Below are positions 27,798-56,720 of a stretch of DNA of 64,000 nucleotides, in pieces. The notes beneath the pieces were generated by a model. That model had not been told where the DNA came from. It made no database searches and worked only from the letters and a program-made list of their open reading frames with translations. Origin of the DNA: Rhodanobacter sp. C06 (lineage in GTDB: Bacteria; Pseudomonadota; Gammaproteobacteria; Xanthomonadales; Rhodanobacteraceae); contig NZ_MUNP01000030.1 of the NCBI RefSeq assembly GCF_002001105.1, positions 1-64,000 of the forward strand. The letters are read 5' to 3'. Each line of letters begins with the position of its first letter. The stretch's first letter is position 1. The position numbers and the translations under genes are program-made.

Positions 27798-27835
27798 AAG
27801 TATCGTAGCGTGATATCGGTGATGGGGGTTTGTCC

Positions 27836-38932: not shown

Positions 38933-40468
38933 ATGTGGAAAAGATGGCACGCTCGTGCAGGACACGCGAGCAGCATTTCGCACCGAGTGGTCTGGGTGCG
39001 CCCACTGGCATGGGCGGTGGCGTTGGCTGCATGGATTGACGCCCTGTATTTCGTTTTGCGCAGTGCAAACCCGGTCATCCGGTCGGACGACTGGTATTAC
39101 TTGGATGTCTTCGTGCGCAAGGCGGTGGCAGGCCAACTCGGCCTCGTCGACTTCTTCGCCAGACGCTACGACGCCGACCATGCGCAGCCGTTGAACAAAC
39201 TGGTGATGTTGCTGGAGTGGCGCTGGTTTGATCTCGATTTTGCCGTGGGTGCGGTGATCGGCGTGATGGCCGCTGCCGTGTGCGCGATGATCCTGCACCG
39301 GGTCTTGCTGCCGTCGCAGCGCGACCCGCGGGGTGATGCGCGTCGTTATCTGGCCTGGTCCGTCATCTGCGCGTTGCTGTTCTCGCTCAACGCCAGCGGC
39401 ATCTGGACATGGCCGCTGGTGGCGCTCGGCTACCTAGCCGTCGTGCCGATCCTGTTGTTTCTGCTGGCGACGTGGCAGGCGTGGCAGCACCAGCGCTATC
39501 TGCTGCTGACGCTGGCGACCCTGCTGCTCGGCGTGGTGGCGGACGACAGCGCCATGATCACCGTGGTTGCCACGCTGGCGGCCCTGTTGCTGCTCGCGTT
39601 CCGTGATCCGTCACCGTCGCGCGCCGTCCCGTGGAAGACGGTGCTGGTGATCCTCGCCTGCACGGTGCTGGTGCGGATCGGCTACACCCTCGTTCCCGTG
39701 CTGGACAGCACGCCCAGCCCGTCGCTGTCCACCCATCTGGCCGTGCTGCACGGACAGTTGCAAGCCGGCGGGGCGTGGCAATGGCTCAGCATTCCACTGG
39801 CATCGTCGGTGGCGCACGACAACCCCTTTCACGGTTTGTCGGCGACGACGTGGAACACGCTGCAGATGATCGTGGTCGCGGGTCTGCTCGCCGCGCATGC
39901 GATGTTCTGGTGGCGCGCCCTGCGTGGCGGATACAACAAGCCGGTGTTTGTCGCCGTGTGCCTGATGCTGCTTTCGTATGGCTGGCTGGCGGGCATCATC
40001 GTCATGCGCGTGTCGTATTTCGGCAGTGGTTACCTTGCCCAGGATCGCTATGTCGAGTTCTACCAGTTCAACCTGATGGCGCTGTTGCTGATGTGGGCGA
40101 GTGCGTCGCCGCCCGCCTGTCCGAGTACACCGTGGCGGCACTGGCTCACGGGGCACGTTCCCGCGGCGGCCTGCGTGCTGTTGCTGCTGCTGCAGATTCC
40201 GCTGGCGCAGGCTGCCTGGCAGCAGCGGCGCTACAGCCTTCCCTACTATGGCCAGATGGCGACCCAGATCGAGCAGATGTCGGCTGACCCGACACGGACG
40301 CAAGGCTGCCTGCCGCTGCTGGTGGTTTGCCAGTGGCCGCTCGAGCGCCGGCGCGCGGCGCTGGACCTGCTGCGCGACCAGCGCCTGAACGTGTTTTCGT
40401 CACGCGTACAAGCACGGCACCGGTTCCTGCCACGCTGGCCTGCCGATGCCGAAGGACACGCGCCATGA
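38933..40468 (+). CDS. Polytopic membrane protein, GT-C-like
   Basis: A 511-residue inner-membrane protein with about ten hydrophobic helices. The first periplasmic loop carries NPVIRSDDWYYLDVFVRKA, with the paired aspartates seen in GT-C/PMT-type glycosyltransferases, then FFARRYDADHAQPLNKL. A soluble C-terminal tail of about 80 residues follows. A role in moving sugars from polyprenol-phosphate to the O-antigen in the periplasm is likely by analogy. ATG 38933 with GGGA-like box. The next gene begins close to its end, also GT-C-like. Confidence 0.65.
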   Translation: MWKRWHARAGHASSISHRVVWVRPLAWAVALAAWIDALYFVLRSANPVIRSDDWYYLDVFVRKAVAGQLGLVDFFARRYDADHAQPLNKLVMLLEWRWFDLDFAVGAVIGVMAAAVCAMILHRVLLPSQRDPRGDARRYLAWSVICALLFSLNASGIWTWPLVALGYLAVVPILLFLLATWQAWQHQRYLLLTLATLLLGVVADDSAMITVVATLAALLLLAFRDPSPSRAVPWKTVLVILACTVLVRIGYTLVPVLDSTPSPSLSTHLAVLHGQLQAGGAWQWLSIPLASSVAHDNPFHGLSATTWNTLQMIVVAGLLAAHAMFWWRALRGGYNKPVFVAVCLMLLSYGWLAGIIVMRVSYFGSGYLAQDRYVEFYQFNLMALLLMWASASPPACPSTPWRHWLTGHVPAAACVLLLLLQIPLAQAAWQQRRYSLPYYGQMATQIEQMSADPTRTQGCLPLLVVCQWPLERRRAALDLLRDQRLNVFSSRVQARHRFLPRWPADAEGHAP

Positions 40469-40505
40469 CGCGGCAGGTACGCCGCGGCCGGTTCGGGGTT
40501 TCGGC

Positions 40506-42110
40506 ATGATGGCGCCGTCCATGCAATCTCCCGATGCCATGTCGCAGCGGCTCGATCATCGGATCGTCTGCGCGGCCCTGTTGTTGGCCGTTGCCGCTTC
40601 CCTGGCGAGATTTCTGCTGGAAGCGCATCTCGGCTTCAATCTGTGGGACGAGGGTTATCTCTGGTACGGCGTGCAGCGCGTGCTGCATGGCGAAGTGCCG
40701 ATTCGAGATTTCATGTCCTATGACCTGGGTCGCTATTACTGGGCCGCGGGTGTGCTGTGGTTGTTCGATGTGCACGGTATCGTCGCCGTGCGTGCGGCGA
40801 CGGAGTTGTTCTCCACGCTGGGTGTCGTTGCGGCCGCCTGGCTCGTGCTGCGCGGATCAAATGGCAACGGACTGATGCGCCTGGGTCTGTGCGCCGTGGC
40901 AGTGGTGTTGTGCCTGCTGTGGATGGTGCCGTGGTGGAAGGGGTACGACGCGGCCATCTCGATCATCCTGGTCGCCAGCCTGGCGCGGGTACTGACTAGT
41001 CCATCGCCCGTACGCTTCCTGGTACATGGTGTGGTGATTGGCGTTGCCGCGGTGTTCGGAAAAAATCACGGATTCTACGGTGTGGTTGCATGTCTGCTTG
41101 CCACGCCTGCGTTGATGCTGCGCGTTGCCCCGCCTGCATGGCGTCGCTGCATTCCGGCGTGGCTGGCGGGGGTGACCGTCGGCTTCTCCCCGATCCTGCT
41201 GGGGCTGGTGCTGGATCACCAGTTCGCGGTCATGTTCTGGGAGAGCATCCGTTTCCTCCTGTTCGAGTACCACGGGACCAACCTTCCGTTGCCGGTGCCA
41301 TGGCCGTGGACAGTGCATGGCGATGGCGCGTTGACGCAGGCACTGCTCGCGCGATGGGTGACGGGGGGCATGTTCCTGCTGCTTCCGCTTTTTTGCGTCA
41401 TTGGCATGGCGGTCGTCGCGCATCGCTTGCGCCGCCACGGCAGGATTGTGCACCCGGAGTTTGTGGCCTGTGTAGCCACCGCGATTCCCTATCTCAACGT
41501 GGCGTTCTCGCGGGCGGACGCCTCTCATCTCGCCCAGGCGATATTTCCGCTACTGATCGGCGTGCTGATTCTCCCCGCGCGTGGCTTGGGCCAGGCGTTG
41601 CTTCGCTGGCTGGGATTTCCGTTGCTGGCGTTGGCCTCGTTGCTGGTCGCACTGCCACTGCATCCCTGGTACCAGGCGCGGACGCAGCCCGGTTGGCGCG
41701 TCGTCGATGTGCGGGGTGACGCATTGCGCATGAGTGACGCCGCGGCGGTCCCGGTCGAAGCCGTCGAGAGCCTGGCACATCGCTACGTCCCGAGTGGTGG
41801 CACGCTGCTCGCGGCGCCGGTCTGGCCGGGAGCGTACGCGCTGCTGGGAATCAGGTCGCCGGTATGGGAAATCTATCCGCTGTTTCCGCGCAGCGACAGT
41901 TTCCAGAGACAGGAAATCGGTCGGCTGCAACAGGCCCGTCCGTCGCTGGTACTCGTCTATGACATCGGGGTCGATGGGCGCGAAGACCTGCGTTATGCGC
42001 ACACCCATCCGGTCATCTGGAGCTATGTGCAAACGAACTACAGGCAGCTCGAATCACCTCGCGAGTTACCCGAGCTGCGGGTCTATATCCCGAAACTCTC
42101 GACGGAGTAG
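40506..42110 (+). CDS. Polytopic membrane protein, GT39/GT-C-like
   Basis: A 534-residue inner-membrane protein. The first loop after helix 1 reads LGFNLWDEGYLWYGVQRVLH and then PIRDFMSYDLGRYYWAAGVL, a DE-type acidic pair plus a second aspartate typical of PMT/ArnT-family GT-C enzymes. About ten helices and a periplasmic C-terminal domain follow. ATG 40506 has a GGGG box nine bases upstream; ATG 40446, which overlaps the previous gene, is an alternative. Converges with the minus-strand operon only 18 bases downstream. Confidence 0.7.
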   Translation: MMAPSMQSPDAMSQRLDHRIVCAALLLAVAASLARFLLEAHLGFNLWDEGYLWYGVQRVLHGEVPIRDFMSYDLGRYYWAAGVLWLFDVHGIVAVRAATELFSTLGVVAAAWLVLRGSNGNGLMRLGLCAVAVVLCLLWMVPWWKGYDAAISIILVASLARVLTSPSPVRFLVHGVVIGVAAVFGKNHGFYGVVACLLATPALMLRVAPPAWRRCIPAWLAGVTVGFSPILLGLVLDHQFAVMFWESIRFLLFEYHGTNLPLPVPWPWTVHGDGALTQALLARWVTGGMFLLLPLFCVIGMAVVAHRLRRHGRIVHPEFVACVATAIPYLNVAFSRADASHLAQAIFPLLIGVLILPARGLGQALLRWLGFPLLALASLLVALPLHPWYQARTQPGWRVVDVRGDALRMSDAAAVPVEAVESLAHRYVPSGGTLLAAPVWPGAYALLGIRSPVWEIYPLFPRSDSFQRQEIGRLQQARPSLVLVYDIGVDGREDLRYAHTHPVIWSYVQTNYRQLESPRELPELRVYIPKLSTE

Positions 42111-42128: not shown

Positions 42129-43073
42129 CTACTTTTGTTCGTTGCGTGGATGCCGCAGCAGGAGCAGCAGGCAGGCGAGCCCCGCCAGTGCGGTCAAGGG
42201 CGTGAGCAGACGCAGCGCAATTGCGACGGCTTCTGCATCGGCGACGGAAGCCCCCAGCCAGAGCATGATGCCGCGGCTGCCGAGCTCCGACACGCCCAGG
42301 CCGCCGGGCGTCATGCTGGCGACCACGGCCAGCATGACGCCGCCCAGCAGCAGGCAGACCTCGCTGAAATCCACGCGCACGTTGATGGCCAGTATGGCGA
42401 GCCACCATAGGCCGGCATAGAGCAGCCAGATGATCACCGTCAGCAGGCTGGCGCGAACGATCCGCTTGCGGTGCCGCAACACTTCCGCGTACGGCTGCAG
42501 CCGCACTGGCAGATGGTGCAGATAAATGGCCAGAACGCTGAGCAGCAGCGCCGCCAGCAGCGGCAAAAGCAGTGCCAACGGAGCCAGCCATGCCAACCCG
42601 AAGTGCCAGGCGACGCCGCACAGGCCCATGCCAAGCACACCGCCGAGGTCGAGTACCCGTTCGACGAAGAAGGCGGAGACGCCCAGTCGCCAGGCACTGG
42701 CATGATGGTCTGGAATCAAACGAATCTTGATGACCTCACCCAGCTGGAACGGGGTGAGCGAGGCCAGCCCCGAGGCGGCGCCGTTGGCGCACAGCGACTG
42801 CCAGAAGCGGTGACGATCGGGTTCGATCCCCAGCACGAGCAGCCAGCGCAAGCCGCGCACCGAGAAGGTCGCGAGCAGCAGGGGCAGTGCGCCTGCCAGC
42901 AGCAGGCCTGGATGCAGGTGCACCAGCGCGTGCGCCACCATATGCCAGTCGAACAACCGGATGGTTGCCACCACGCAGGTGACGGCGATCAGCAGCACCA
43001 GCAGATGACGCCAGCGGCGGCGGATCAGCGCACGCATGGATGGCCATTGCGGCGGCCGGCGAGGCGCGACCAT
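42129..43073 (-). CDS. UPF0104 / AglD-like lysylphosphatidylglycerol synthase-type membrane protein
   Basis: A 314-residue inner-membrane protein with about eight helices. The pattern ATFSVRGLRWLLVL, ANGAASGLASLTPFQLGEVIKIRLIP, VSAFFVERVLDLGGVLG and MTPGGLGVSELGSRG matches the UPF0104 family (YbhN, AglD, MprF flippase part). Members are linked to lipid or lipid-sugar translocation. ATG 43073 was chosen since earlier starts would overlap the aminotransferase; ATG 43037 is an alternative. Last gene of the minus-strand operon. Confidence 0.8.
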   Translation of the reverse strand: MVAPRRPPQWPSMRALIRRRWRHLLVLLIAVTCVVATIRLFDWHMVAHALVHLHPGLLLAGALPLLLATFSVRGLRWLLVLGIEPDRHRFWQSLCANGAASGLASLTPFQLGEVIKIRLIPDHHASAWRLGVSAFFVERVLDLGGVLGMGLCGVAWHFGLAWLAPLALLLPLLAALLLSVLAIYLHHLPVRLQPYAEVLRHRKRIVRASLLTVIIWLLYAGLWWLAILAINVRVDFSEVCLLLGGVMLAVVASMTPGGLGVSELGSRGIMLWLGASVADAEAVAIALRLLTPLTALAGLACLLLLLRHPRNEQK

Positions 43074-43131: not shown

Positions 43132-44265
43132 TCAAGCCTGTTCCAGCACGCACTGCGCCGCTTGCATGACGTGCTCCTGCTGGCTTTCGAGCCCGATCCA
43201 CAGCGGCAGGCGTACCAGGCCGTCGCTGGCGGCATCGGTATGCGCCAACGTTCCGGACATGCGCCCGTAGCGCTGGCCGGCGGGCGAGCTGTGCAGCGGG
43301 ATGTAGTGGAAGACCGTGCCGATACCGGCGGCCTTCATTGCCTCGATGAAATGCGTGCGCGCTTCCAGCCCGTGCAGCAGCAGAAAATACATGTGCGCGT
43401 TGTGCGCGCATTCCGCGGGGATGACCGGACGGCGCAGCCGGCCGGCCGATTCCAGCGGAGCCGCCCATGCATGGTAACGGTCCCAGATCGCCAGTCGCCG
43501 GCTGGTGATGTGGTCGGCTTCCTCCAGCTGGGCGGCCAGGAAGGCTGCGACCAATTCGCTGGGCAGGTAGGACGAGCCGAGGTCGACCCAGGTGTACTTG
43601 TCGACCTGGCCGCGGAAAAATCGGGTGCGGTTGGTGCCCTTTTCGCGGATGACCTCCGCGCGCTCGACCAGGGCCGGGTCGTTGATCAGCAGCGCACCGC
43701 CCTCGCCCGAGATCACGTTCTTGGTTTCGTGGAAACTCAACGCCGCCAGGTCACCGATGCTGCCGAGCGGGCGCCCCTTGTACAGCGACAGCATCGCTTG
43801 AGCGGCGTCCTCGACCACGCGCAGCCTGTGGCGCGCCGCGATCGCCATGATGGTGTCCATCTCGCAGGCGACGCCGGCGTAATGCACCACGCAGATGGCG
43901 CGTGTGCGCGGGGTGATCGCCTGTTCGATCAGTGCCTCGTCGATATTCAACGTATCGGGACGGATGTCCACGAACACCGGCACCGCGCCCCGCAGCACGA
44001 AGGCATTGGCCGTCGAGACGAAGGTGAACGAAGGCATGATCACTTCGTCGCCAGGCTGCAGGTCGAGCAGGATGGCCGCCATCTCCAGGGCCGCCGTGCA
44101 GGAATGGGTGAGCAGCGCCTTGCGTGTCCCGGTGCGACGTTCCAGCCACGCGTGGCAGGCGCGTGTGAACGAGCCATCGCCGGACAGCTGGCCCATGGCG
44201 TGCGCCTGGGCGATGTTGTCGAGCTCGCGGCCGACCAGATAGGGGCGGTTGAATGGAATGGTCAT
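43132..44265 (-). CDS. rffA: dTDP-4-amino-4,6-dideoxygalactose transaminase (WecE/RffA)
   Basis: A 377-residue PLP-dependent DegT/DnrJ/EryC1 aminotransferase. MTIPFNRPYLVGRELDNI is the characteristic WecE start. MPSFTFVSTANAFVLRGAVP, VVEDAAQAMLSLYKGRPLG and FHETKNVISGEGGAL (the lysine binds PLP) are intact. In the known pathway it converts dTDP-4-keto-6-deoxyglucose, made here by rfbA and rfbB, to dTDP-4-amino-4,6-dideoxygalactose. No rffC-like acetyltransferase is directly beside it, so the amine may be acylated differently (see WbqC and ATP-grasp neighbours). Confidence 0.92.
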   Translation of the reverse strand: MTIPFNRPYLVGRELDNIAQAHAMGQLSGDGSFTRACHAWLERRTGTRKALLTHSCTAALEMAAILLDLQPGDEVIMPSFTFVSTANAFVLRGAVPVFVDIRPDTLNIDEALIEQAITPRTRAICVVHYAGVACEMDTIMAIAARHRLRVVEDAAQAMLSLYKGRPLGSIGDLAALSFHETKNVISGEGGALLINDPALVERAEVIREKGTNRTRFFRGQVDKYTWVDLGSSYLPSELVAAFLAAQLEEADHITSRRLAIWDRYHAWAAPLESAGRLRRPVIPAECAHNAHMYFLLLHGLEARTHFIEAMKAAGIGTVFHYIPLHSSPAGQRYGRMSGTLAHTDAASDGLVRLPLWIGLESQQEHVMQAAQCVLEQA

Positions 44266-44308
44266 GCGGACGCTCGGCGGATGGACGCGTGCTTGGACGG
44301 CCGTGGGA

Positions 44309-45058
44309 TCACGGATGCGGTGATGTCTGTGCCGGAGGGGCCCGGTCGGTATTCGTGGCGGCGCATCGGTGACCCCAGATGTATTCGGGCGCTTGCGGAC
44401 CGGCGTTGAAAATCAGGTCGAGCACGCTCACGGCATGTTCGAATGGCGGGTAAAGCTGCGGATACTCGGGGTAATCCGAGTAGTCCTTGTATAGCAGTTC
44501 GATGCCCGCAGCATCGAAACGTGCCGGGTCGATATAGTCTTGCGCATTCGGACCGGAAACGTAGGAAGAAGCGCCGGCCTTGAGTAACAGGTCAAGCAGA
44601 CGGTCAAGCTTCTGTCCTTGTGGCGCACGATCGCGCGAATCACTGAATGTGGTGACGATACCCAGCAGATCTGTGGCGATGCTCCGGATCAAATGCTGGT
44701 TCATTTCGGACAATGACGACCAAGTTGTACCGAGATAGAAACCTTCAAAGAATTCGCGATAGGTTTTGAAATACGGCGCCCTGGAATAATTCTGCTGAAT
44801 GGATCGCCAGTGCTTGGCCTGCCACATCGCGTTCTCCAGCGATACTTCGCATATCAATCGTCTGTTGCTGGAACCGGCTGGAACGCTCAGCCACTGCGAG
44901 CCCTGTGCCGTCTTGATCCTGTTGCGCGTGCGCCAATCGCGCGACGTGAACTGCACATCGTCGAGAAAGATGAACTCGTCCACGTCGTGGATGATGTCGA
45001 AATATCCCTTCCACGGGATATACGACGACTGGATGATCGCGACCTTGTGTCCGTTCAT
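44309..45058 (-). CDS. WbqC family protein
   Basis: A 249-residue protein of the WbqC-like family found in many O-antigen clusters. The N-terminus VAIIQSSYIPWKGYFDIIHD is the family hallmark, followed by FLDDVQFTSRDWRTRNRIK and a GSQWLSVPA segment. VSGPNAQDYIDPARFDAAGI is also typical. Biochemistry is not firmly known to me; the family is often found near amino-sugar genes. The ATG at 45058 overlaps the ATP-grasp/HAD stop by four bases, arguing for joint function. Base composition is A/T-richer than adjacent genes. Confidence 0.85.
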   Translation of the reverse strand: MNGHKVAIIQSSYIPWKGYFDIIHDVDEFIFLDDVQFTSRDWRTRNRIKTAQGSQWLSVPAGSSNRRLICEVSLENAMWQAKHWRSIQQNYSRAPYFKTYREFFEGFYLGTTWSSLSEMNQHLIRSIATDLLGIVTTFSDSRDRAPQGQKLDRLLDLLLKAGASSYVSGPNAQDYIDPARFDAAGIELLYKDYSDYPEYPQLYPPFEHAVSVLDLIFNAGPQAPEYIWGHRCAATNTDRAPPAQTSPHP

Positions 45059-46704
45059 GGGTTCAGGCAGGCATGGCGGGCCGAAAGCAGGCTGTCGAGG
45101 ACATCGATGCGGCGGCTGATCGCGCTGGGGACGGTCGCCGCAAGGGCTGCATTGGGGCTAAGGAAGATGCCATTCCTGCGGACGATCAAGGCGTGCATGT
45201 AGCCCGCGCGAATCGCACCGACGCCATCGCGGAAGTAGTTGTCGCCGATCATCACCAGTTGGGCCGGGTCCATGCCCAGCGCATGCGCCGCCTGCAGGAA
45301 CGCGGCGGGAGCGGGTTTTTCCCCGCCGTGCTCGCGGCTGCAGACGACGGCGTCGATGCAGTCGAGCGCCCGCGCCTGGCGTATCTTGGCGCGCTGTGTC
45401 GCGGGAGGGTTGTCGGTGAGGATGGCCAGGGGCAGGCCGGCGGCCTTCAGCGCCTTGAGTGTCGCCTCGACATCGTCGAACAGGGGCGTCTCGGCAACGA
45501 TCGCCGCGCGATACGCATCCATCGCCACGGTGCGCAGGCTTTCCGGCAGCGCCAGCATCGCAAGCAGTCGATCGATCAGGAACGCGCGTTCACCCTCGTC
45601 GATCAATTGCGCTGCGCACAGCAGGAAGGCGGATCGTTCCACCCATGCGGAAAAGACGTCCGCATGGATGAGTTGCAGCTTTTCGAGCATCCACTCCTTG
45701 TGCCTGACCAGGGTATCGTCGAGGTCGAAGACGATGCCCCGGGGTGCGGGCTGCAGCAGCGGTACGACGATGTCTTCGAGCACGCGCACGGTCTTGACGG
45801 CCCTGCGTGCCGACAAGTCCGGTGCCGCCGCGGCCGCGCCGGTTCCCATGAAGAATCCCGGCAAGTTGATGCCCTCGGCGAGCGCATGCGTGGCGGAGGT
45901 TCCGGTGCGCGGGTTGACGTCGGAAACGAACGCGATGCCGTCCGGCGGCGCGACTATCTGGGTGTTGTAGATACCGCAGCCGCCCGCGGCGGCGATGGCT
46001 GCCGCCGTCTGCTGCGCGAGCGCGGCGATGCGTGGATCGTGCACCGATGTGGAGATGACGGCGAAACCGCCGGATGTCCGCAGCCGCTGACGCAGCACGA
46101 CCGGCGAGATGCGGCCATGCGGATCGACCGCGAAGTCGGCCGAGTACTCTTCGAAGGCAGGTAACCACGCCGACCACACATGGGTGGCGAAGTCACCTTG
46201 ATACGCAAGCGCTTCCTCGCGGCTGCGCAGGAGCACGGTGCCGCGGCCGCCCCAGCCTTCGCACGGCCTGCCGAACAGGGGTTGTGCATAGCCGTGAGTG
46301 AGCGGGTCCAGCAGCTCCGGTACCGGCAAGCCGGCGTCGTCGAGAAATTGATGGGTGCGCAGTTTGTCCAGCAGCGTCGTGGTCAGTTCTTCGCCGGCCA
46401 CGGCCACGGCGGCGCCCAGGTCGGCCAACCGGTTCCTGAGGCGCGCCAGCGTGGGCAGCTCATAGGCGGTCGCGGGGAAAATGGCGTCCACGCGCTCGTG
46501 GCGTACCAGGTCGATCAGGAACGTCTCGAATGCGTGCTCATCCGCCAGTGGCGGGGCCACGAAACATTCCCCACAGACATAACGCACGGGGTGTTCGGCG
46601 TGGATGTCGCAGACCAGCACCCTGGTGCGATCCAGTCGCTGCAGGGCGCGCACGATGCCCAGCCCTTGGAAGCCGCCCGCGCTGACGACGAGCGCGGTTT
46701 TCAT
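45055..46704 (-). CDS. ATP-grasp / HAD hydrolase fusion protein
   Basis: A 549-residue two-domain protein. The N-terminal half (about 1-315) resembles carbamoyl-phosphate-synthase-type ATP-grasp ligases: ALVVSAGGFQGLGIVRALQR, LLDKLRTHQFLDDAGLPVPE, PCEGWGGRGTVLLRS and FVSDVNPRTGTSATHAL (metal-binding acidic/Asn motif). The C-terminal half (about 321-540) is a HAD-superfamily hydrolase: D327-L-D329-D-T-L nucleophile loop, LAILTDNPPATQRAKIRQ, and MIGDNYFRDGVGA. It may ligate an acid or amino acid to a sugar amine while the HAD part removes a phosphate. Four-base overlaps join it to WbqC and the methyltransferase. Confidence 0.82.
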   Translation of the reverse strand: MKTALVVSAGGFQGLGIVRALQRLDRTRVLVCDIHAEHPVRYVCGECFVAPPLADEHAFETFLIDLVRHERVDAIFPATAYELPTLARLRNRLADLGAAVAVAGEELTTTLLDKLRTHQFLDDAGLPVPELLDPLTHGYAQPLFGRPCEGWGGRGTVLLRSREEALAYQGDFATHVWSAWLPAFEEYSADFAVDPHGRISPVVLRQRLRTSGGFAVISTSVHDPRIAALAQQTAAAIAAAGGCGIYNTQIVAPPDGIAFVSDVNPRTGTSATHALAEGINLPGFFMGTGAAAAAPDLSARRAVKTVRVLEDIVVPLLQPAPRGIVFDLDDTLVRHKEWMLEKLQLIHADVFSAWVERSAFLLCAAQLIDEGERAFLIDRLLAMLALPESLRTVAMDAYRAAIVAETPLFDDVEATLKALKAAGLPLAILTDNPPATQRAKIRQARALDCIDAVVCSREHGGEKPAPAAFLQAAHALGMDPAQLVMIGDNYFRDGVGAIRAGYMHALIVRRNGIFLSPNAALAATVPSAISRRIDVLDSLLSARHACLNP

Positions 46705-47438
46705 GCAGGCCGCGCGGTCAGCAGGATGCCATTGCAGATATCCGGCAGGTCGTAGCCGACATCGATGAACGCGTTCTCGATATCCGGGGCGAGCGACAGT
46801 TGCTGCAGTTGCGACGTGGTCAGCGGCTTGAGCACCAACCCCACCTTGTCCAGGATGGCGTAGCCGGAGTCTTCCACCAGGCGGCTGATCGAGCCGTTGT
46901 CGAAATAGCGCTTGTGGCCCAGTTCCCGGTCGTACTGGCTCAGGGCGTACAGGTCGGTCAGGAGGCCTGCGGAGTGACCCAGCAGGCGGTGCAGCGAGCG
47001 GGCGTTGGGCACGGCCGCAAACAGGACGCCGGTCGGTTTCAGGAAGGCCCGGAAGCGGCGCAGGATCAGGCCCGGATCATCGACGTGTTCCAGCACGAAT
47101 CCCATCTCGATCGCATCGAATGGCTGATCGAAATGCGCCTGCTCGAAATAGGTGTGGTGGATCGTGACATGCGCCGGCGGCGACGTCTCGGCCCGGTAGC
47201 GGGCGATGATGTCAGCGGCCCCCTCGAGAACGTGGTAGTCCGTCACGTCGAGTCGATCGCGGATCGCCTGGCTGACACGCTGCCCGCCGATACCCAGGCT
47301 GAGTACCCGCAACGCCCGCTGGCCTTGCAGCCGTTCGACGATCTTCCGCGCGTAGGCCGCCAGCAAGGCTTCCTCATCGCGGTGGTAGGGAAATTGCTCG
47401 GTATAGGCGCCCTGGTAGGCGTTGAGATCTTCTTGCAT
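46701..47438 (-). CDS. Class I SAM-dependent methyltransferase
   Basis: A 245-residue protein. RVLSLGIGGQRVSQAIRDRL is motif I, YHVLEGAADIIARY the acidic loop, DAIEMGFVLEHVDDPGLILR motif IV, and FLKPTGVLFAAVPNARSLH the post-I loop. This pattern is usual for sugar O- or N-methyltransferases in polysaccharide clusters. It is 9 bases after the GT2 gene and overlaps the ATP-grasp/HAD gene by four bases. It may methylate the amino sugar or its acyl group. Confidence 0.82.
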   Translation of the reverse strand: MQEDLNAYQGAYTEQFPYHRDEEALLAAYARKIVERLQGQRALRVLSLGIGGQRVSQAIRDRLDVTDYHVLEGAADIIARYRAETSPPAHVTIHHTYFEQAHFDQPFDAIEMGFVLEHVDDPGLILRRFRAFLKPTGVLFAAVPNARSLHRLLGHSAGLLTDLYALSQYDRELGHKRYFDNGSISRLVEDSGYAILDKVGLVLKPLTTSQLQQLSLAPDIENAFIDVGYDLPDICNGILLTARPA

Positions 47439-47447
47439 CCGGGAGCC

Positions 47448-48419
47448 TCAATCGTGAAATTCGCGAACGATAAACAGGGGGCGGTTCTGCGTCTGGGTGT
47501 AGATGCGCGAGATATACAGACCGATCACGCCGAGCACCGTGATGATAATGCCGGACATGCCGATGATGACCAGCATCAGCGAAGTGAAGCCGGTCAGTAC
47601 CGCCTCGGGGTGGAGCAGTTTGCGGACGATCAGGGCGATGCCGGCGACGCCGGCGCACAGCGTGATGCCTATACCGCCGCCGAGAACCAGCTTCAGCGGC
47701 ACGGTGGAGAAGGAGGTCACCGCTTCCAGCAGCAGCGCGAATCGCTTGCGCAAGGAGTAGGTCGAGGCATTCTCACGTTGCGTCTTCTCGACGAGAACGG
47801 CCACCTGGTGGAAACCCGACCAGTACATCATGCCGCCAAGAAAGACATTGCGATCGCCCAGCGACAGCAGGGCATCGACATAGCGACGCGTCATCAGCCG
47901 CTCGCTGAGCACGTTGGCGGGAACCTTGGTGTCGCTGAGGCGATTGAACAGACGCCAGAACAGTGCGCCGCCGACGCGCTCGGTCAACGCACCCTTGCGC
48001 TTGCCCTGGATGCCGTAGACGACATCCGCGCCGGTTCTGCGGAGTGTCTCCAGGAAATGCGGCAATACACCCGGGCGCACTTCCAGATCGCAGTCGATGA
48101 TGAACAGCAGATCGCCGCTGGCATGGGCCAAGCCCGCCATCACGGCCTTGTGATGGCCGAAGTTGCGTGACAGATCCACGATCTTGATGGCGGCATTCGT
48201 GCTGCGTGCATGGATGAGATGCTGCATCGATTCATCGGGAGAGCCATCGTTGACGAAGACCAGCTCATAACGATCGATGCCCGCTTCACCGATGGCGGCG
48301 ATCATCTCGTCGATGAAACGAGTGATGAACCGCTCGGAGCGGTAGACGGACGTGACGATGCTCAGCAGCGGGGCTGGCACCGCCGATTCCCGAGATGGTG
48401 TGGTGCCGGGCGTCAGCAT
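47448..48419 (-). CDS. GT2 polyprenol-phosphate glycosyltransferase (ArnC/DPM-like)
   Basis: A 323-residue membrane-anchored glycosyltransferase. The GT2 domain shows SIVTSVYRSERFITRFIDEM, YELVFVNDGSPDESMQHLI, DLSRNFGHHKAVMAGLAHA and FIIDCDLEVRPGVL. Two C-terminal helices (LVLGGGIGITLCAGVAGIAL, MLVIIGMSGIIITVLGVIGL) lead to YISRIYTQTQNRPLFIV, the classic end of ArnC/GtrB/DPM-like proteins. It would place a sugar, perhaps the 4-amino-4,6-dideoxy sugar, on undecaprenyl phosphate. ATG 48419 with AGGAA upstream; an upstream extension in the same frame is rejected. First gene of the minus-strand operon. Confidence 0.88.
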   Translation of the reverse strand: MLTPGTTPSRESAVPAPLLSIVTSVYRSERFITRFIDEMIAAIGEAGIDRYELVFVNDGSPDESMQHLIHARSTNAAIKIVDLSRNFGHHKAVMAGLAHASGDLLFIIDCDLEVRPGVLPHFLETLRRTGADVVYGIQGKRKGALTERVGGALFWRLFNRLSDTKVPANVLSERLMTRRYVDALLSLGDRNVFLGGMMYWSGFHQVAVLVEKTQRENASTYSLRKRFALLLEAVTSFSTVPLKLVLGGGIGITLCAGVAGIALIVRKLLHPEAVLTGFTSLMLVIIGMSGIIITVLGVIGLYISRIYTQTQNRPLFIVREFHD

Positions 48420-48587
48420 GGGGCCGGATTCCTGCGGGGTGAGGACGTCGTAAGAATGAAGTGCGGTAGCTTGCCTGGAGCACAACCAGAGGCAATGGCG
48501 CAGTGATCCGGCGGCAGCTGGTTGCTGTCTGGCCAAGCAGGGTACCCCGGATGATACGGAGCAGCCCAGGCTCACGTCATGGCCGGT

Positions 48588-49532
48588 TTAACCCAGTGCC
48601 TGCTCCAGCTCCGGTATCAGCTTGAACAGATCCCCCACCAGGCCAAAGTCGGCTACCTCGAAGATCGGCGCCTCGGCGTCCTTGTTGATCGCCACGATGG
48701 TGCCGGCGTCCTTGATGCCGGTGAGGTGCTGGATGGCGCCGGAGATGCCGATCGCCATGTACAGTTCGGGCGCGATGATCTTGCCGGTCTGGCCCACCTG
48801 CAGGTCGCTTGGCACGTAGCCGGCGTCGACCGCTGCGCGCGAAGCGCCCACGGCGGCACCGATCCTGTCCGCGAATTTGTAGATGATCTCGAAGTTTTCC
48901 TTCGAACCCACGCCACGACCGCCGGAGACGACCTTGTTCGCGCCTTGCAGGTCGGGGCGATCGCTCTTGCCCGACTGCAGGCCGATGTAGCGGGTGTGGC
49001 CGGGCAGGATCACGTCCAGCGCAAGCGCTTCGACCGGTGCGCTGTTCGTGCCTGTCGCGGCAGCGGGCCATGAAGCGGTGCGGATGGTGGCGACCACGGG
49101 ATGCGACGGTTCGGCCTCGACGGTGACGATCGCATTGCCGGCATAGATCGGCCGCTTGAAGGTGTGCGTACCTTCCACGCTCATCACGTCGCTGACCTGG
49201 GCCACGCCGAGCAGGGCGGCGACACGCGGCGTCACGTCCTTGCCGAAGGTGGTGGACGGTGCGAACACGTGGCTGTAGCCAGCGGCGGCCTTGGCGATCT
49301 GCGGCGCCAGCACGGCGGCCAGCGGGTGGGCGTTCTCGGCGCGCTCGACGGTGAGCACGCGGTTCACGCCGTTGATCGTCGCGGCCTCGGCGGCGAGTGT
49401 GGCGACATTGTCGGCCAGCACCAGCACGTCGATGGCTGCGGGCTTCACCGCGGCAGCGGCGCTCACGGCGCGGGCGGTGGAGGAGTTCAGCTTGCCGTCC
49501 AGATGTTCGGCGATGACGAGGATCTTGCTCAT
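48588..49532 (-). CDS. etfA: Electron transfer flavoprotein subunit alpha
   Basis: A 314-residue FAD-binding subunit. It accepts electrons from acyl-CoA and other dehydrogenases and passes them to ETF-ubiquinone oxidoreductase. The C-terminal FAD domain has [60 protein letters not shown] and [14 protein letters not shown]. It follows etfB after 111 bases that hold a palindromic repeat. In Xanthomonas this gene marks the border of the LPS cluster, as it does here. Confidence 0.96.
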
Positions 49533-49573
49533 GGCATGGTTCCTTGTGTCCTGCTTTTCGGTAGGAGCACTGC

Positions 49574-49627
49574 AGGAGCGGCTTCAGCCGCGATTCGTTT
49601 CAGCCGTTCGCGGCTGAAGCCGCTCCT
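49574..49627. repeat. REP-like palindromic element
   Basis: Perfect 20-base inverted arms (49574-49593 and 49608-49627) begin AGGAGCGGCTTCAGCCG and end GAAGCCGCTCCT, separated by 14 bases; a preceding GTAGGAGC at 49561 hints at a second, degenerate unit. It lies inside the etfB-etfA operon. Confidence 0.85.
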
Positions 49628-49643
49628 ACGGGTGATGTGGGGG

Positions 49644-50390
49644 TTACAGCAAACCCTTCTGCTTCAGCGCCGCGACCAATTCGGCGGCGTCCTTCACCAT
49701 CACGCCCTTGCTGCGCTTGGCCGGCACGGCGTAGTGGGTGGTATTCAGGTGGTCGCCGTTGTCAACGCCCAGCGAGGCCAGCTCGACCACGTCGATGGGC
49801 TTGCTCTTGGCCTTCATGATGTCCGGCAGCTTGATGAAGCGCGGTTCGTTGAGGCGCAAGTCGCTGGTGATCACTGCAGGCAGTTCCACCTCGATGGTTT
49901 CGAGGCCGGCATCCACTTCGCGCGTCACGGTGGCCTTGCCATCGGCGATCTCGACCTTGCTGGCGAAGGTGGCCTGCGGGCGGTCCCATAGCGCGGCGAG
50001 CATCTGGCCGGCCTGGTTGGCGTCGTCGTCGATCGCCTGCTTGCCCAGGATCACCAAGCCAGGCTGTTCCTTCTCCACCAGCTTCAGGAACGCGCGTGCT
50101 GCAGTGAGAGGCTGCACGGCGTCGCTAGTGGTCACGTGTATGGCACGATTGGCGCCCATCGCCAGGCCATTGCGCAGGTGCGCGGTGAGGTCGGACGGAC
50201 CGATGCTGACCACGATCACCTCCGTGGCGACACCCTTCTCGCGCAGGCGCAGCGCCTCTTCCAGAGCGATGTCGTCGAACGGATTGGCGGACAGCTTCAC
50301 GCCATCGGTGACCACACCGCTGCTGTCGGGCTTGACCTGGATGCGCACGTTGTAGTCCACCACGCGCTTGTAACCGACCAGAATTTTCAT
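49644..50390 (-). CDS. etfB: Electron transfer flavoprotein subunit beta
   Basis: A 248-residue subunit that binds AMP and pairs with EtfA. It starts MKILVGYKRVVDYNVRIQVK and shows VKLSANPFDDIALEEALRL, GKQAIDDDANQAGQMLAALW and the family signature VTREVDAGLETIEVELPAV. ATG 50390 has a strong GGAGGGAAGG box; longer forms of the frame are rejected. A minus-strand TACAAT at 50452-50447 may be the -10 of its promoter. Confidence 0.96.
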   Translation of the reverse strand: MKILVGYKRVVDYNVRIQVKPDSSGVVTDGVKLSANPFDDIALEEALRLREKGVATEVIVVSIGPSDLTAHLRNGLAMGANRAIHVTTSDAVQPLTAARAFLKLVEKEQPGLVILGKQAIDDDANQAGQMLAALWDRPQATFASKVEIADGKATVTREVDAGLETIEVELPAVITSDLRLNEPRFIKLPDIMKAKSKPIDVVELASLGVDNGDHLNTTHYAVPAKRSKGVMVKDAAELVAALKQKGLL

Positions 50391-50733
50391 GTGCCTTCCC
50401 TCCATCGGGCGCCCGCTCGGCGCTTGGCCTAGCCACGCAAACGGCGATTGTAGCCCATGCCCCAACCGGTTCAGAACCGTGGGCCATGCCGCGGCCGTCC
50501 GGCTTGGTGAGAAGGGCGGGGCCAAGGTTTCGGCGCGGCGATGCCGGTCTGTCTGTGTCTCCCGGGATGCCTTCCCACTCTGGGCATGATATGCCGCCAT
50601 CGACGTTCCGACTGGCCACCGGACGCCGCTGTCCCATGATGGGGTATGCGACGCGCACGGCCCTGCGGCGATCGATCGCATGGCAAAAGTGCCGGACAAA
50701 AGTCCGGCACTTTCCGTGCAACACCGATTTTGA
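50391..50733. other. Intergenic region: etfB promoter side and terminator of the secreted HExxE protein
   Basis: A 343-base gap. The part next to etfB should hold its promoter (TACAAT at 50452-50447 on the minus strand, no clear -35). The part next to 50734 holds a strong terminator. No gene was recognised between. Confidence 0.5.
50685..50713 (-). terminator. Rho-independent terminator of the secreted HExxE-protein gene
   Basis: On the minus strand a 12-bp perfect stem AAAGTGCCGGAC/GTCCGGCACTTT with a TTTT loop is followed by a T-run (TTTTG) about 20 bases after the stop at 50734. Confidence 0.8.
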
Positions 50734-52791
50734 CTAGTTCCCGTGGAAGGGCTTTGCCTGGACCACTGCGCTGGAAGGCAGCGTCACGGGCGCCCCCGCG
50801 ACGTTGTGCAAACGGTAGCCCTGGAAGTCCGAGCCGGTGCTTTGCCAATCGTAGGCATCCCCCGCTGCGTCCATCCACAAGACATCCGCTTTGCCGTCGC
50901 CGTTGAAATCGGCGATCTTCGCAATCCAGTATCCCGGCGCGACAGGGCGGGTGCCGCGGGCAGTGACGGTGTTGCCATTCATCAGCCACCAGCCGAACTG
51001 ATGCGTGGTGTCGTTGGTGAACAGCAAGTCACTCTTGCCATCGCCGTCGACATCGCCCGCGCCCTGCAGGACCCAACCCGCAGGGAAGTCGCCCACAAAG
51101 TGATGGGCGAAGTGCCCGGTGCCGTCGTTGATCCAGGTGTACAGGTCGTTGTTGGGGCCGGTAAACACGAAGTCCATGAAGCCATCGCCATTGAGATCGG
51201 CGAGCGTCAGCTTGTAATCGATGGCGGTTGGCAGCAGCGCGGAATAGCTCACCGCCACTTGGGAGCTGCCTGGCGTGAAAGTCAGTTCCCACCAAGCCAC
51301 CTGTCCCGTCGATTCATTGCACCATATCAACGCATTCTTGCCGGAGGCGTCCACCTTGCCGGCACCCACCAGCGTCCAGCCGGCGGGGTAGGGCGAGCCC
51401 ACTTTGTAGGCGGTGCGACCGCCATTGCCATCGTTCAGCCAGACGTAAAGCTGGCGGCTCGTCGGGCTGGTAAACGCGAAGTCGGCGATGCCGTCGTTGT
51501 TCAGGTCGACCGTCGCGCCGATCGTGTAGCCCGCGGCGATCGCCTGGGTTTGCGATTGCACGACAGTCGCGCCGTTCACGCCCAATTGGGTCAGTGCGCC
51601 GGCCGCTGGATTGATATAGGTGATGGTGGCCACGACTGGGGGTGGGGGAGTGCCTACAATCGGATGCGACATGTCGCACTCGTTGGTGTCATTCGACCAG
51701 ATGCTTTGCATGGCGTAGCTGCCATTGCCCATGACCACGTTCGCGAGGGCACCTTGGCCGCTGTATATCCAGGCGCACTCGTCACCGGACTCGCCGCCAT
51801 TGGTGGAGGCGTTGTTCGAGTTGAACCAGCCATAGTCCGGGATCTGGTCGGTGATGGTTTCGGCGTACTCGTGACCCTCGACGATGGAGAAGCCGTCCAG
51901 GTTGCCTTGTGCGGAATTGCCATTGACCAGGCCTTGTCCGCAGTTCATGTCATTGACGTAGGGCATGTTCGTGTATGCGACGAAACCGCCATAGGAGGAG
52001 GCCCAGGCGTCGCTGTGCCAAGCGCAAAAATTGCCGCTGGGGGTGTTGAAGCCATCGGGATGAGTGCCCGTCGGCGACAGGATCACGTATTGCGCATAGC
52101 GGTTGGAGTCAGCCGTCGTATTGCCGAAGTGCTGCGCCGCATTCAACGCTTCCTGCCCGAGTTGATCTTGGGTCGCCTGCGGTGGCGCGGCAGCCGAGTT
52201 GTCGTACCAGATGCCGGCGAATGCCGATCCGCCGGTCGGATAGCTGATGTACGCGGCGCCGACAGGGCAGGATGTCGCGCCGGACGATACCGCCGGGCCG
52301 TCGCAGTACTGTGTCATGGTGCCTGACCACAGTTCGCCCCCGGTACCCATGCCCTTGAACATGCTCTCCAGGTACGGCACCGCACCAAACGCGTCGCCGG
52401 ACAGGTTCATATTGCCATTGCCATCGGTACTGGCAGTACCCCATTGGTTTCCGTAGACAACCAGGTAAACCCTGGGGATGCCGCTGGTGACGCCGACGCC
52501 GTTGTAGCCGCCGCCGAAACTGAGCGTGTTCGGGCCGGTGGTGGCGGCCGTGGGCATGTGCAGCGCCCGGTATTGCATCATCTGGCTGTAGGCGTCGCGG
52601 GTCGGCACGGCACCATGGCGATACGGGTGACCATAGGCCGGCGCATACGGATTACCCACAGGATGCACGATGGTGTTGCTTGTCATGTTGTTGCTGCCGT
52701 CATCGCCGTTGGCGAGGGCAGTGCCGGCAACCATGCCCAGCAATGCAGTCGCGACGGCTATCAGCATTCTGCGATTCGTGCGGTAACTCAT
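50734..52791 (-). CDS. Secreted HExxE protein with C-terminal FG-GAP/VCBS-like module
   Basis: A 685-residue exported protein. A signal peptide ends near GMVAGTALA. The first about 390 residues have an enzyme-like part with VEGHEYAETITDQIPDYGW; H307-E308-x-x-E311 is close to a zincin motif but lacks the second histidine. It resembles the region around HELAExxTDP of phosphate-induced/EXO-type proteins; a peptidase role is not proven. The C-terminal about 300 residues carry repeated D-NGDG calcium-type motifs (DLNNDGIADF, DLNGDGFMDF, DVDGDGKSDL, DFNGDGKADV), as in FG-GAP/VCBS propellers, paralogous to the next gene. ATG 52791 has AAAGGAG upstream. Confidence 0.75.
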   Translation of the reverse strand: MSYRTNRRMLIAVATALLGMVAGTALANGDDGSNNMTSNTIVHPVGNPYAPAYGHPYRHGAVPTRDAYSQMMQYRALHMPTAATTGPNTLSFGGGYNGVGVTSGIPRVYLVVYGNQWGTASTDGNGNMNLSGDAFGAVPYLESMFKGMGTGGELWSGTMTQYCDGPAVSSGATSCPVGAAYISYPTGGSAFAGIWYDNSAAAPPQATQDQLGQEALNAAQHFGNTTADSNRYAQYVILSPTGTHPDGFNTPSGNFCAWHSDAWASSYGGFVAYTNMPYVNDMNCGQGLVNGNSAQGNLDGFSIVEGHEYAETITDQIPDYGWFNSNNASTNGGESGDECAWIYSGQGALANVVMGNGSYAMQSIWSNDTNECDMSHPIVGTPPPPVVATITYINPAAGALTQLGVNGATVVQSQTQAIAAGYTIGATVDLNNDGIADFAFTSPTSRQLYVWLNDGNGGRTAYKVGSPYPAGWTLVGAGKVDASGKNALIWCNESTGQVAWWELTFTPGSSQVAVSYSALLPTAIDYKLTLADLNGDGFMDFVFTGPNNDLYTWINDGTGHFAHHFVGDFPAGWVLQGAGDVDGDGKSDLLFTNDTTHQFGWWLMNGNTVTARGTRPVAPGYWIAKIADFNGDGKADVLWMDAAGDAYDWQSTGSDFQGYRLHNVAGAPVTLPSSAVVQAKPFHGN
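50740..51640 (-). repeat. Duplicated FG-GAP-like module, copy 1
   Basis: This 3' part of the HExxE gene is closely similar at DNA and protein level to 53010-53930. Shared landmarks include MDFVFTGPNNDLY, INDGTGHF, LLFTNDTTHQFGWWLMNG and DAAGDAYDWQ. Long near-identical DNA blocks (for example around 51140-51200 against 53420-53480) suggest fairly recent duplication or gene conversion. Confidence 0.8.
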
Positions 52792-52954
52792 TTTATTGAC
52801 TCCTTTCAAAGAGGCATTGAGCCAGCCGATGTGGCTGGGCTGGGCTCATGCCAGGTGTGATAAAACGTGTGACTGGTCCGGCGGCCCTGACTTGACGCTC
52901 AGGATGAGAAGGGCCGCGAATGCTTGACGGTCCGACTCCAAAAGAGCCGATGGA

Positions 52955-56263: not shown

Positions 56264-56720
56264 GGATTTCCCCTGTGCAATGACCAAGTATCCATGGCCT
56301 CGATCGCGCATCCCTGTTGTCCGGGAATTCAGCGGGCACTCGTTCCATGGAGTTCTGCCTTCCGGGAAAATGGATTCACCCGGAATAGGCGGCGGACATA
56401 GTCAGGGACCAATTAATACGCTGTCAAACGATTTTTGTTGAGCGGGTGTTATGCAACTCGGAGGAGAATGGCTGATGGCTCGATTGCGTCCGCAATAGAT
56501 TGCGGCTTTCGAATAAAATCACTTTTCCGTATTAAATTGCGATGCCCCTGCGGCTAAAGCCAAAGTCAGAAGCTCACCGCGGGCCATGGAGGCAACTTGC
56601 CTGCTTCAGCAAGTCGCCGGGTTTGCTGGTGCGTCGGTCACCGTGTGCAGCGGTCCGACCCCCGTATGACGATCTGCTGATCGCGACGGGCGTACGAACG
56701 ATGTCGGGATCGATATGCAA
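56264..56720. other. A/T-rich intergenic region upstream of the S53 gene
   Basis: A 457-base gap holding the leader of the S53 gene and the downstream side of the glycosyltransferase at 56721. The stretch 56400-56545 is strikingly A/T-rich compared with the rest of the window. No gene was recognised, and no T-tailed terminator for the glycosyltransferase was seen. Confidence 0.5.
56399..56427 (-). promoter_or_regulatory. Candidate sigma-70 promoter for the S53 peptidase gene
   Basis: Minus strand: TTGACA (56427-56422), then about 17-18 bases (GCGTATTAATTGGTCCC), then a weak -10 (GACTAT). It lies about 135 bases before the ATG at 56263, inside an A/T-rich block. The -35 is perfect, the -10 is poor. 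Confidence 0.35.

What the first reader, a model, noticed from the sequence alone, without database searches (positions are those of the whole stretch)
43132..47438. ATP-grasp/HAD fusion with WbqC, aminotransferase and methyltransferase: possible new acylation route for a 4-amino-4,6-dideoxy sugar
The genes are tightly coupled (four-base overlaps between methyltransferase, ATP-grasp/HAD and WbqC genes; WecE follows). RmlA/RmlB and WecE would give dTDP-4-amino-4,6-dideoxygalactose, yet the usual acetyltransferase RffC is missing. An ATP-grasp ligase, a HAD phosphatase and WbqC together could attach an unusual acid or amino acid to the amine, which the methyltransferase could then methylate.
Basis: partly seen in the sequence, partly recalled or inferred. 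Interest (0 to 1): 0.72.

Follow-up and report, generated by a model that had tools for sequence, protein, structure and literature searches.

The report
Swappable amino-sugar capping gene cassette
A block of bacterial genes looks able to hang an unusual amino-acid-like group, instead of plain acetate, on a rare surface sugar, and comparison with relatives points to a so far unexplained protein in it (WbqC) as the enzyme that makes the bond.

Summary
In detail: methyltransferase, ATP-grasp/HAD fusion and WbqC overlap by 4 bp, WecE follows, and no RffC-type acetyltransferase was found. The operon is larger: it starts with an ArnC/GtrB-like glycosyltransferase and ends with a flippase-like gene, a three-component periplasmic glycosylation layout. 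I examined 17 loci with the cassette; 14 have WecE. In 15 related WecE loci without it, WecE sits with a GNAT acetyltransferase (9), a hexapeptide acyltransferase (1), WbqC plus a small methyltransferase without ATP-grasp/HAD (2), or nothing recognised (3). That GNAT was found in 0 of 16 cassette genomes. The WecE tree forces at least 4 changes of module. So the cassette is an exchangeable substitute for N-acetylation. WbqC's predicted fold matches BshC (Z 14.3), the putative ligase joining cysteine to glucosamine, though no sequence link was found. WbqC lies near sugar aminotransferases in 12 of 14 distant loci, against 1 of 20 for RmlC. In E. coli O121, whose Qui4N carries N-acetylglycyl, it lies between aminotransferase and GNAT. 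Most likely WbqC joins an amino acid to the sugar amine, and ATP-grasp/HAD and methyltransferase elaborate it. Acid, order of steps and activity are unproven.

The parts
47448..48575 (-). GT2 of the ArnC/PgfS/GtrB kind (longest ORF; the true start is probably about 48419), proposed undecaprenyl-phosphate sugar transferase
   Evidence: PF00535; NCBIfam PgfS 183.4 bits and ArnC 122.5 bits, both under their cut-offs of 500 and 529; two C-terminal hydrophobic helices; present in 16 of 17 cassette loci
46701..47438 (-). SAM methyltransferase, proposed to methylate the acyl group or sugar
   Evidence: PF13489; 16 of 17 cassette loci
45055..46704 (-). ATP-grasp (about residues 1-315) fused to HAD phosphatase (about 320-515)
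   Evidence: PylC-like_N and PF00702; solved relatives 2pn1 and N-acylneuraminate-9-phosphatase; K114, W151-G153, D262-x-N264-P265-R266 and HAD residues D327, D329, T430, K463, D488, D493 invariant in 14 aligned sequences
44309..45058 (-). WbqC, proposed BshC-like amino-acid:amino-sugar ligase
   Evidence: PF08889; model pLDDT 88.5; BshC 4wbd Z 14.3; aminotransferase neighbours in 12 of 14 distant loci against 1 of 20 for RmlC
43132..44265 (-). WecE, dTDP-4-amino-4,6-dideoxygalactose transaminase
   Evidence: TIGR02379 610.7 bits, NF008687 611.7 bits, both over cut-off; solved relatives 4piw and 6blg
42129..43037 (-). LPG_synthase_TM (flippase-like) protein; the longest ORF starts at 43235 inside wecE, the likely start is about 43037
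   Evidence: PF03706 and TIGR00374 over cut-off; same place taken by an ArnF-like protein in 12 of 17 cassette loci
40446..42110 (+). Multi-helix membrane protein, candidate GT-C glycosyltransferase, convergent
   Evidence: No Pfam match; 9 predicted helices by a simple hydropathy count; relatives near 7 further cassette loci
38933..40468 (+). Second multi-helix membrane protein, candidate GT-C glycosyltransferase
   Evidence: No Pfam match; 7 predicted helices; relatives in L025 and L039
15503..16624 (-). RmlB, source of dTDP-4-keto-6-deoxyglucose
   Evidence: PF16363
14622..15557 (-). RmlA
   Evidence: PF00483

Best explanation
The cassette is a swappable N-acylation module of a three-component periplasmic glycosylation system. 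(1) RmlA/RmlB and WecE make dTDP-4-amino-4,6-dideoxygalactose (families assigned here; the reactions are established knowledge). (2) WbqC, with a BshC-like fold, joins an amino acid to the 4-amine of the sugar (inferred from fold, gene context and the O121 glycan). (3) The ATP-grasp/HAD fusion prepares or adds a further acid, the HAD part removing a phosphate carried by that building block, and the methyltransferase methylates the product (inference; acid and order unknown). (4) The ArnC/GtrB-like GT2 puts the finished sugar on undecaprenyl phosphate, the LPG_synthase_TM protein (an ArnF-like protein in most relatives) flips it, and a GT-C enzyme attaches it to the surface glycan outside the cytoplasm (inferred from architecture). 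In related genomes a GNAT acetyltransferase stands in the place of steps 2-3.
For: Cassette in 17 loci, always with WbqC and a flippase, 14 with WecE. WecE in 12 of 14 cassette genomes and 27 of 233 family genomes. Of 15 WecE loci without the cassette, 9 have a GNAT, 1 a hexapeptide protein, 2 WbqC with a small methyltransferase. The GNAT is absent from 16 of 16 cassette genomes and found in 4 of 4 controls, one of them the query's own genome. WecE tree: at least 4 forced changes of the cassette label. WbqC fold: BshC Z 14.3 over 224 residues, next row 8.4. WbqC near DegT in 12 of 14 loci, RmlC in 1 of 20. E. coli O121: DegT-WbqC-GNAT and N-acetylglycyl on Qui4N (PMC3210612, passages). ATP-grasp and HAD catalytic residues kept in 14 of 14 aligned.
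Against: Three of 17 cassettes lack WecE in the stretch; G065 and G095 have none at E <= 1e-60, and in G142 it lies about 87 kb away beside another acylation set. Foldseek alone is weak for BshC (E 0.013, none <= 0.001) and no sequence link was found. L118 also has a hexapeptide protein, and L119 a weak match to one, next to WbqC, and L039 has a weak hexapeptide match and a second methyltransferase-like match, so modules are not always cleanly separate. No model of the ATP-grasp/HAD protein could be used. GT-C identity rests on predicted helices and position. L125 and L130 have WbqC with no aminotransferase in the stretch.
Confidence: 0.55

Rival explanations
1. The ATP-grasp domain itself acylates the 4-amine with a phosphorylated acid and the HAD domain then removes the phosphate, as in the C. 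jejuni pair Cj1438C (amide formation) and Cj1435 (HAD phosphatase); WbqC has an accessory role.
For: Both domains keep their catalytic residues; precedent in PMC11800397 (passages); ATP-grasp enzymes commonly form amides (established knowledge); BshC activity had not been shown in vitro as of 2015 (PMC4360819, passages).
Against: WbqC serves with WecE without ATP-grasp/HAD in L083, L084 and L120; ATP-grasp/HAD was never seen without WbqC (17 of 17); WbqC and not ATP-grasp/HAD follows aminotransferases across the class.
Confidence: 0.25
2. The amine is acetylated in the ordinary way by an enzyme encoded elsewhere, and the cassette modifies another part of the glycan.
For: G065 and G095 have the cassette but no WecE at E <= 1e-60, and G142 has WecE far from it; a generic GNAT lies at 27830-28690 of the window.
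Against: WecE in 14 of 17 cassette loci; no RffC match over the cut-off in the own genome; no relative of the WecE-linked GNAT in 16 of 16 cassette genomes; repeated module changes on the WecE tree.
Confidence: 0.13
3. WbqC is a nucleotidyltransferase-like enzyme (the fold class also holds cytidylyl- and adenylyltransferases) that activates a small molecule rather than joining it to the sugar.
For: Many such enzymes appear in the fold list at Z about 7.
Against: BshC stands well above them (14.3 against at most 8.4) and covers 224 of 249 residues; the O121 context fits an amide-former.
Confidence: 0.15

Closest known systems
Three-component periplasmic glycosylation (Shigella GtrABC; C. youngae pentofuranose system, PMC11127046, passages) and the Arn pathway for L-Ara4N
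   Same: Und-P glycosyltransferase of the GtrB/ArnC kind, a flippase (LPG_synthase_TM, or ArnF-like in relatives), candidate GT-C enzymes; as in Arn, a DegT aminotransferase makes a 4-amino sugar (Arn steps recalled)
   Different: A WbqC + ATP-grasp/HAD + methyltransferase module for the amine, which neither has; acceptor unknown
Enterobacterial WecE-RffC (WecD) route to dTDP-Fuc4NAc
   Same: WecE
   Different: No RffC over the cut-off; acylation module replaced
BshC, putative cysteine:GlcN-malate ligase of bacillithiol synthesis
   Same: Predicted WbqC fold (Z 14.3); proposed joining of an amino acid to a sugar amine; a methyltransferase acts afterwards in some bacteria (NmbA, PMC12719100, passages)
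   Different: No detectable sequence relation; WbqC is about 249 residues against 540; different sugar
E. coli O121 O-antigen cluster
   Same: RmlB/RmlA-DegT-WbqC in a row; WbqC 25% identical over 222 residues
   Different: GNAT in place of ATP-grasp/HAD and methyltransferase; Wzx/Wzy genes rather than the three-component set
C. jejuni Cj1438C/Cj1435 amide pair
   Same: ATP-dependent amide formation with a phosphorylated partner, then a HAD phosphatase (PMC11800397, passages)
   Different: There the sugar gives the carboxylate and the partner the amine; homology was not tested here

Membership tests
WecE (TIGR02379) | Score over the curated cut-off | tested here: met
   610.7 bits, cut-off 434.85
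WbqC (PF08889) | Score over the curated cut-off | tested here: met
   253.7 bits, cut-off 21.3
BshC | Overall fold | tested here: met
   4wbd Z 14.3, rmsd 3.4, 224 aligned; Foldseek E 0.013
BshC | Sequence family membership | tested here: not met
   20 of 20 alignment members match PF08889 and no BshC family at E <= 1; no BshC chain in a profile search of the PDB
BshC | Joins an amino acid to a sugar amine | not testable with these tools
   Needs enzyme assay
Three-component periplasmic glycosylation | GtrB/ArnC-type GT2 with C-terminal helices | tested here: met
   PF00535 and two C-terminal helices; the ArnC and PgfS models score under their cut-offs
Three-component periplasmic glycosylation | Flippase | tested here: inconclusive
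   LPG_synthase_TM in the window; ArnF-like protein in 12 of 17 loci, one of which scored 54.4 bits against the ArnF cut-off of 99
Three-component periplasmic glycosylation | GT-C glycosyltransferase | tested here: inconclusive
   Two multi-helix proteins without Pfam match
RffC/WecD acetyltransferase route (TIGR02382) | RffC present in the genome | tested here: not met
   Best 26.1 bits, cut-off 195.1; the model also does not name the GNAT of relatives, so the second search is the better test: no match
HAD phosphatase | Four catalytic motifs | tested here: met
   D327, D329, T430, K463, D488, D493 invariant in 14 sequences; motif roles recalled
ATP-grasp ligase | Family score and ATP/metal residues | tested here: inconclusive
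   PylC-like_N over its cut-off, ATP-grasp_3 just under; 2pn1 at E 5.8e-21 with the profile; K114, WGG loop and DxNPR kept

The most novel reading that the evidence does not exclude
WbqC (PF08889), a family described in print as functionally uncharacterised, is a widespread class of BshC-type aminoacyl:amino-sugar ligases that put amino acids on the amine of DegT-made nucleotide sugars; in this cassette the ATP-grasp/HAD protein and the methyltransferase extend that amino acid into a methylated, peptide-like cap, and the whole module is exchanged for acetyltransferases as a unit that changes the surface glycan, often beside etfBA.
Probability: 0.4. Interest if true: 0.78.

Novelty: new variant of a known kind. 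Interest (0 to 1): 0.62.

Why it matters
Many bacterial surface sugars carry amino-acid or hydroxy-acid caps (for Qui4N: formyl, acetyl, N-acetylglycyl and others, PMC3210612, passages). A concrete, testable assignment for the WbqC family could explain some of these in O-antigens and other surface glycans. Nature supplies a ready series in which one aminotransferase is paired with an acetyltransferase, with WbqC plus a small methyltransferase, or with WbqC plus ATP-grasp/HAD and methyltransferase, from which the contribution of each part can be read. It may also bear on BshC, whose activity had not been shown in vitro as of a 2015 review (PMC4360819, passages).

Tried and rejected
Structure of the ATP-grasp/HAD fusion from 5 sequences: mean pLDDT 47.6, not used. 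ATP-grasp/HAD relatives in viral contigs: none confirmed; in plasmids two partial ATP-grasp matches only. At E <= 1e-40 the class sample gave 1 of 369 and the phylum sample 1 of 398 genomes, each time the own genome (only up to 3 first-look candidates were scored in each genome), against 12 of 398 in the order. A sequence-level bridge from WbqC to BshC was not found; BshC sequences could not be fetched for a profile comparison. Viral structure library: five matches at E <= 0.001, all without a name. Folds not listed are not excluded.

Considered and rejected: chance adjacency (17 of 17 loci keep ATP-grasp/HAD with WbqC); an ordinary WecE/RffC pair; WbqC lying near aminotransferases only because both sit in polysaccharide clusters (RmlC control 1 of 20). 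Caveats of that control: the 20 RmlC loci are high-scoring ones taken in rank order from 82 of 143 genomes with a match, skipping the 16 WbqC-positive genomes and two matches at a contig start; five of the 20 stretches are 10-16 kb instead of 19 kb. On the WbqC side the own genome and one match split by a stop were left out (14 of 16), and L125 is a 4-kb contig. The Fisher test takes genomes as independent, which they are not; the tree is the better guide. In one search some GT2, ArnF, GNAT, hexapeptide and methyltransferase queries come from the loci themselves and match there by construction; family scans of examples are.

Rows dropped: L102 (stop in its matched stretch), L103 and L117 (near copies) were not put in the WbqC alignment A3, so 15 of 18 viral loci are in it. 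A4 holds 14 of 17 ATP-grasp/HAD sequences. L005-L007 are the same places as L025-L027 and were counted once.

Literature: WbqC occurs in 12 held papers; five were opened at the passage. PMC5532660 calls the family functionally uncharacterised; PMC7848895 and PMC5507510 give only a possible O-antigen role; PMC9650423 and PMC10434189 list a WbqC protein together with a DegT aminotransferase. The other seven were seen in the listing only. Searches for ATP-grasp with WbqC-like, ATP-grasp with O-antigen and amide terms, wbnG with glycine, O121 with glycine, and Qui4N/GlyAc terms found nothing on this cassette. Recalled, not read: that the Pfam text mentions a proposed glycine transferase, that WbqC is named after the O121 cluster, and that the S. 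dysenteriae 7 antigen equals O121.
Full report
What is there. Family scans bear out each label; WecE is far over its curated cut-off, while the ATP-grasp half is weakly but consistently assigned. The nearest named relative of the ATP-grasp/HAD protein is from Rhodanobacter sp. 7MK24, 89% identical. The operon begins after etfBA with a GT2 of the ArnC/PgfS kind with two C-terminal helices and ends with an LPG_synthase_TM protein; two multi-helix proteins on the other strand converge on it. The window also holds rml genes, ManC, and an ABC exporter with a Wzt C-terminal domain, so the backbone glycan is probably made inside the cell and exported (inference).

Conservation. The ATP-grasp/HAD protein has relatives in 14 of 233 family genomes (E <= 1e-30), 12 of 398 order genomes (E <= 1e-40, two of them new) and only the own genome in 369 class and 398 phylum genomes. 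With a Luteimonas contig this gives 17 distinct loci, the window included. ATP-grasp/HAD is with WbqC in 17 of 17. GT2 and methyltransferase are in 16 of 17 (L033 ends at its contig edge). A flippase is in 17 of 17: LPG_synthase_TM in 5, a roughly 124-residue ArnF-like protein in 12. WecE is in the stretch in 14 of 17. Relatives of the window's two candidate GT-C proteins are near 9 of 17, the window included. In the Luteimonas locus WbqC is divergent and lies before GT2, so gene order is not what holds the set together. The exceptions are L029, L031 and L032. G065 and G095 have no WecE at E <= 1e-60 but have other DegT aminotransferases, best matched by ArnB, PseC and (G065) DesI models, all under their cut-offs. 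G142 has WecE about 87 kb away, beside hexapeptide and ketosynthase-like genes. The cassette may therefore accept other amines.

The swap. WecE occurs in 27 of 233 family genomes (E <= 1e-100), among them 12 of the 14 with the cassette (Fisher p 3.5e-11, not corrected for kinship). I fetched the 15 WecE loci without the cassette. Nine carry a GNAT, one a hexapeptide acyltransferase, two WbqC with a small methyltransferase and no ATP-grasp/HAD; in three nothing was recognised, two of which are 3-4 kb stretches. A GT2 of the same kind is in 11 of the 15 and a flippase in 10. The WecE-linked GNAT is absent from 16 of 16 cassette genomes searched and found in 4 of 4 controls, one being the query's own genome. 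A WecE tree of 31 rows needs 8 changes of the cassette label, at least 4 of them forced by well-supported branches, with supported pairs such as L033 (cassette) and L078 (GNAT), or L035 (cassette) and L075 (GNAT). Against a perfectly clean picture, L039 shows a weak hexapeptide match and a second methyltransferase-like match, and L008 a weak one.

What WbqC does. A model of the window's WbqC from 20 sequences is good (pLDDT 88.5, pTM 0.85). One solved structure stands out: BshC of B. subtilis, Z 14.3, rmsd 3.4, 224 residues, against 8.4 for the next row (a tRNA synthetase complex) and about 7 for pantothenate synthetases and nucleotidyltransferases. Foldseek alone is weak (best row, E 0.013) and no sequence relation is detectable, so this is likeness of fold, not membership. 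BshC is the putative cysteine ligase of bacillithiol synthesis, presumed to add cysteine to GlcN-malate; its activity had not been shown in vitro as of 2015 (PMC4360819, passages). Across 54 aligned rows the best-kept residues are Q10, P15, G18, D33, R45, N46, Y91, Y166, Y199, F206 and D214 (94-100%).

Independent context. In a class sample WbqC occurs in 16 of 158 genomes. In the 14 loci fetched (own genome and one split by a stop left out) a DegT aminotransferase lies in the stretch in 12, within 3 kb in 11; for RmlC the figures are 1 and 0 of 20. E. coli O121 has rfbB-rfbA-DegT-WbqC-GNAT with touching or overlapping ends, its WbqC is 25% identical to the window's over 222 residues, and a review cites the O121 polysaccharide for Qui4N bearing N-acetylglycyl (PMC3210612, passages). 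Aminotransferase for the amine, WbqC for glycine and GNAT for acetyl would account for that group one by one (inference). Two papers list WbqC with a DegT aminotransferase, in a Dickeya zeae flagellar region and in Bacteroides thetaiotaomicron (PMC9650423, PMC10434189, passages).

What the rest does. ATP-grasp/HAD was never seen without WbqC (17 of 17), while WbqC occurs with WecE but without ATP-grasp/HAD in L083, L084 and L120, where a methyltransferase is the only other modifying enzyme recognised; L118 also has a hexapeptide protein and L119 a weak match to one. So WbqC is the likelier amide-former and ATP-grasp/HAD an elaboration. The HAD residues are intact, and among its best-scoring solved relatives is N-acylneuraminate-9-phosphatase. 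A precedent for amide formation with a phosphorylated partner followed by a HAD phosphatase is C. jejuni Cj1438C and Cj1435 (PMC11800397, passages). For the methyltransferase, NmbA acting on bacillithiol is a parallel (PMC12719100, start of abstract and passages). The acid, the order and the number of residues remain open.

Assembly. GT2, flippase and GT-C form the three-component layout for adding sugars outside the cytoplasm (PMC11127046, passages), and aminotransferase plus ArnF-like partner recall the Arn pathway (recalled). The acceptor is unknown.

Verdict. The pieces (three-component glycosylation, WecE, N-acylated amino sugars) are known kinds; the acylation module is a new variant. 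Its real interest lies in a testable function for WbqC and in the natural series of exchanged modules.

Noticed in passing
window 48588-50393 (etfA, etfB): The place beside etfBA holds different WecE modules in different genomes: etfA is in the stretch in 8 of 17 cassette loci and 6 of 15 other WecE loci, as if it were a hot spot for exchanging glycan genes.
   Followed up: partly
L100-L117 (viral contigs): 18 viral contigs encode WbqC relatives, up to 54% identical to the window's; five viral proteins in the structure library also match the model. Phages may alter glycans with it.
   Followed up: no
own genome, contig C44, 10597-10704 and 171351-171458: Two short matches to PF08889 (positions 5-40 of the model, 45.2 bits each) in opposite orientation on one contig, in open frames of 80 aa.
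   Followed up: no
window 20159-23431: One long protein matches sulfotransferase, group-1 and family-2 glycosyltransferase models one after the other.
   Followed up: no
window 27830-29501: A GNAT protein and a PIG-L deacetylase overlap just before WecB: possibly another amino-sugar acyl exchange.
   Followed up: no
window 50734-52809 and 53006-56311: Two neighbouring long ORFs whose C-terminal parts look alike by eye, with repeated DxNGDG-type stretches; two cassette loci, L029 and L032, have FG-GAP repeat proteins near the cassette.
   Followed up: no
L090 9174-13819: In G142 WecE lies beside a ketosynthase III-like and a hexapeptide protein: possibly a further, ketosynthase-based way to cap the amine.
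   Followed up: no
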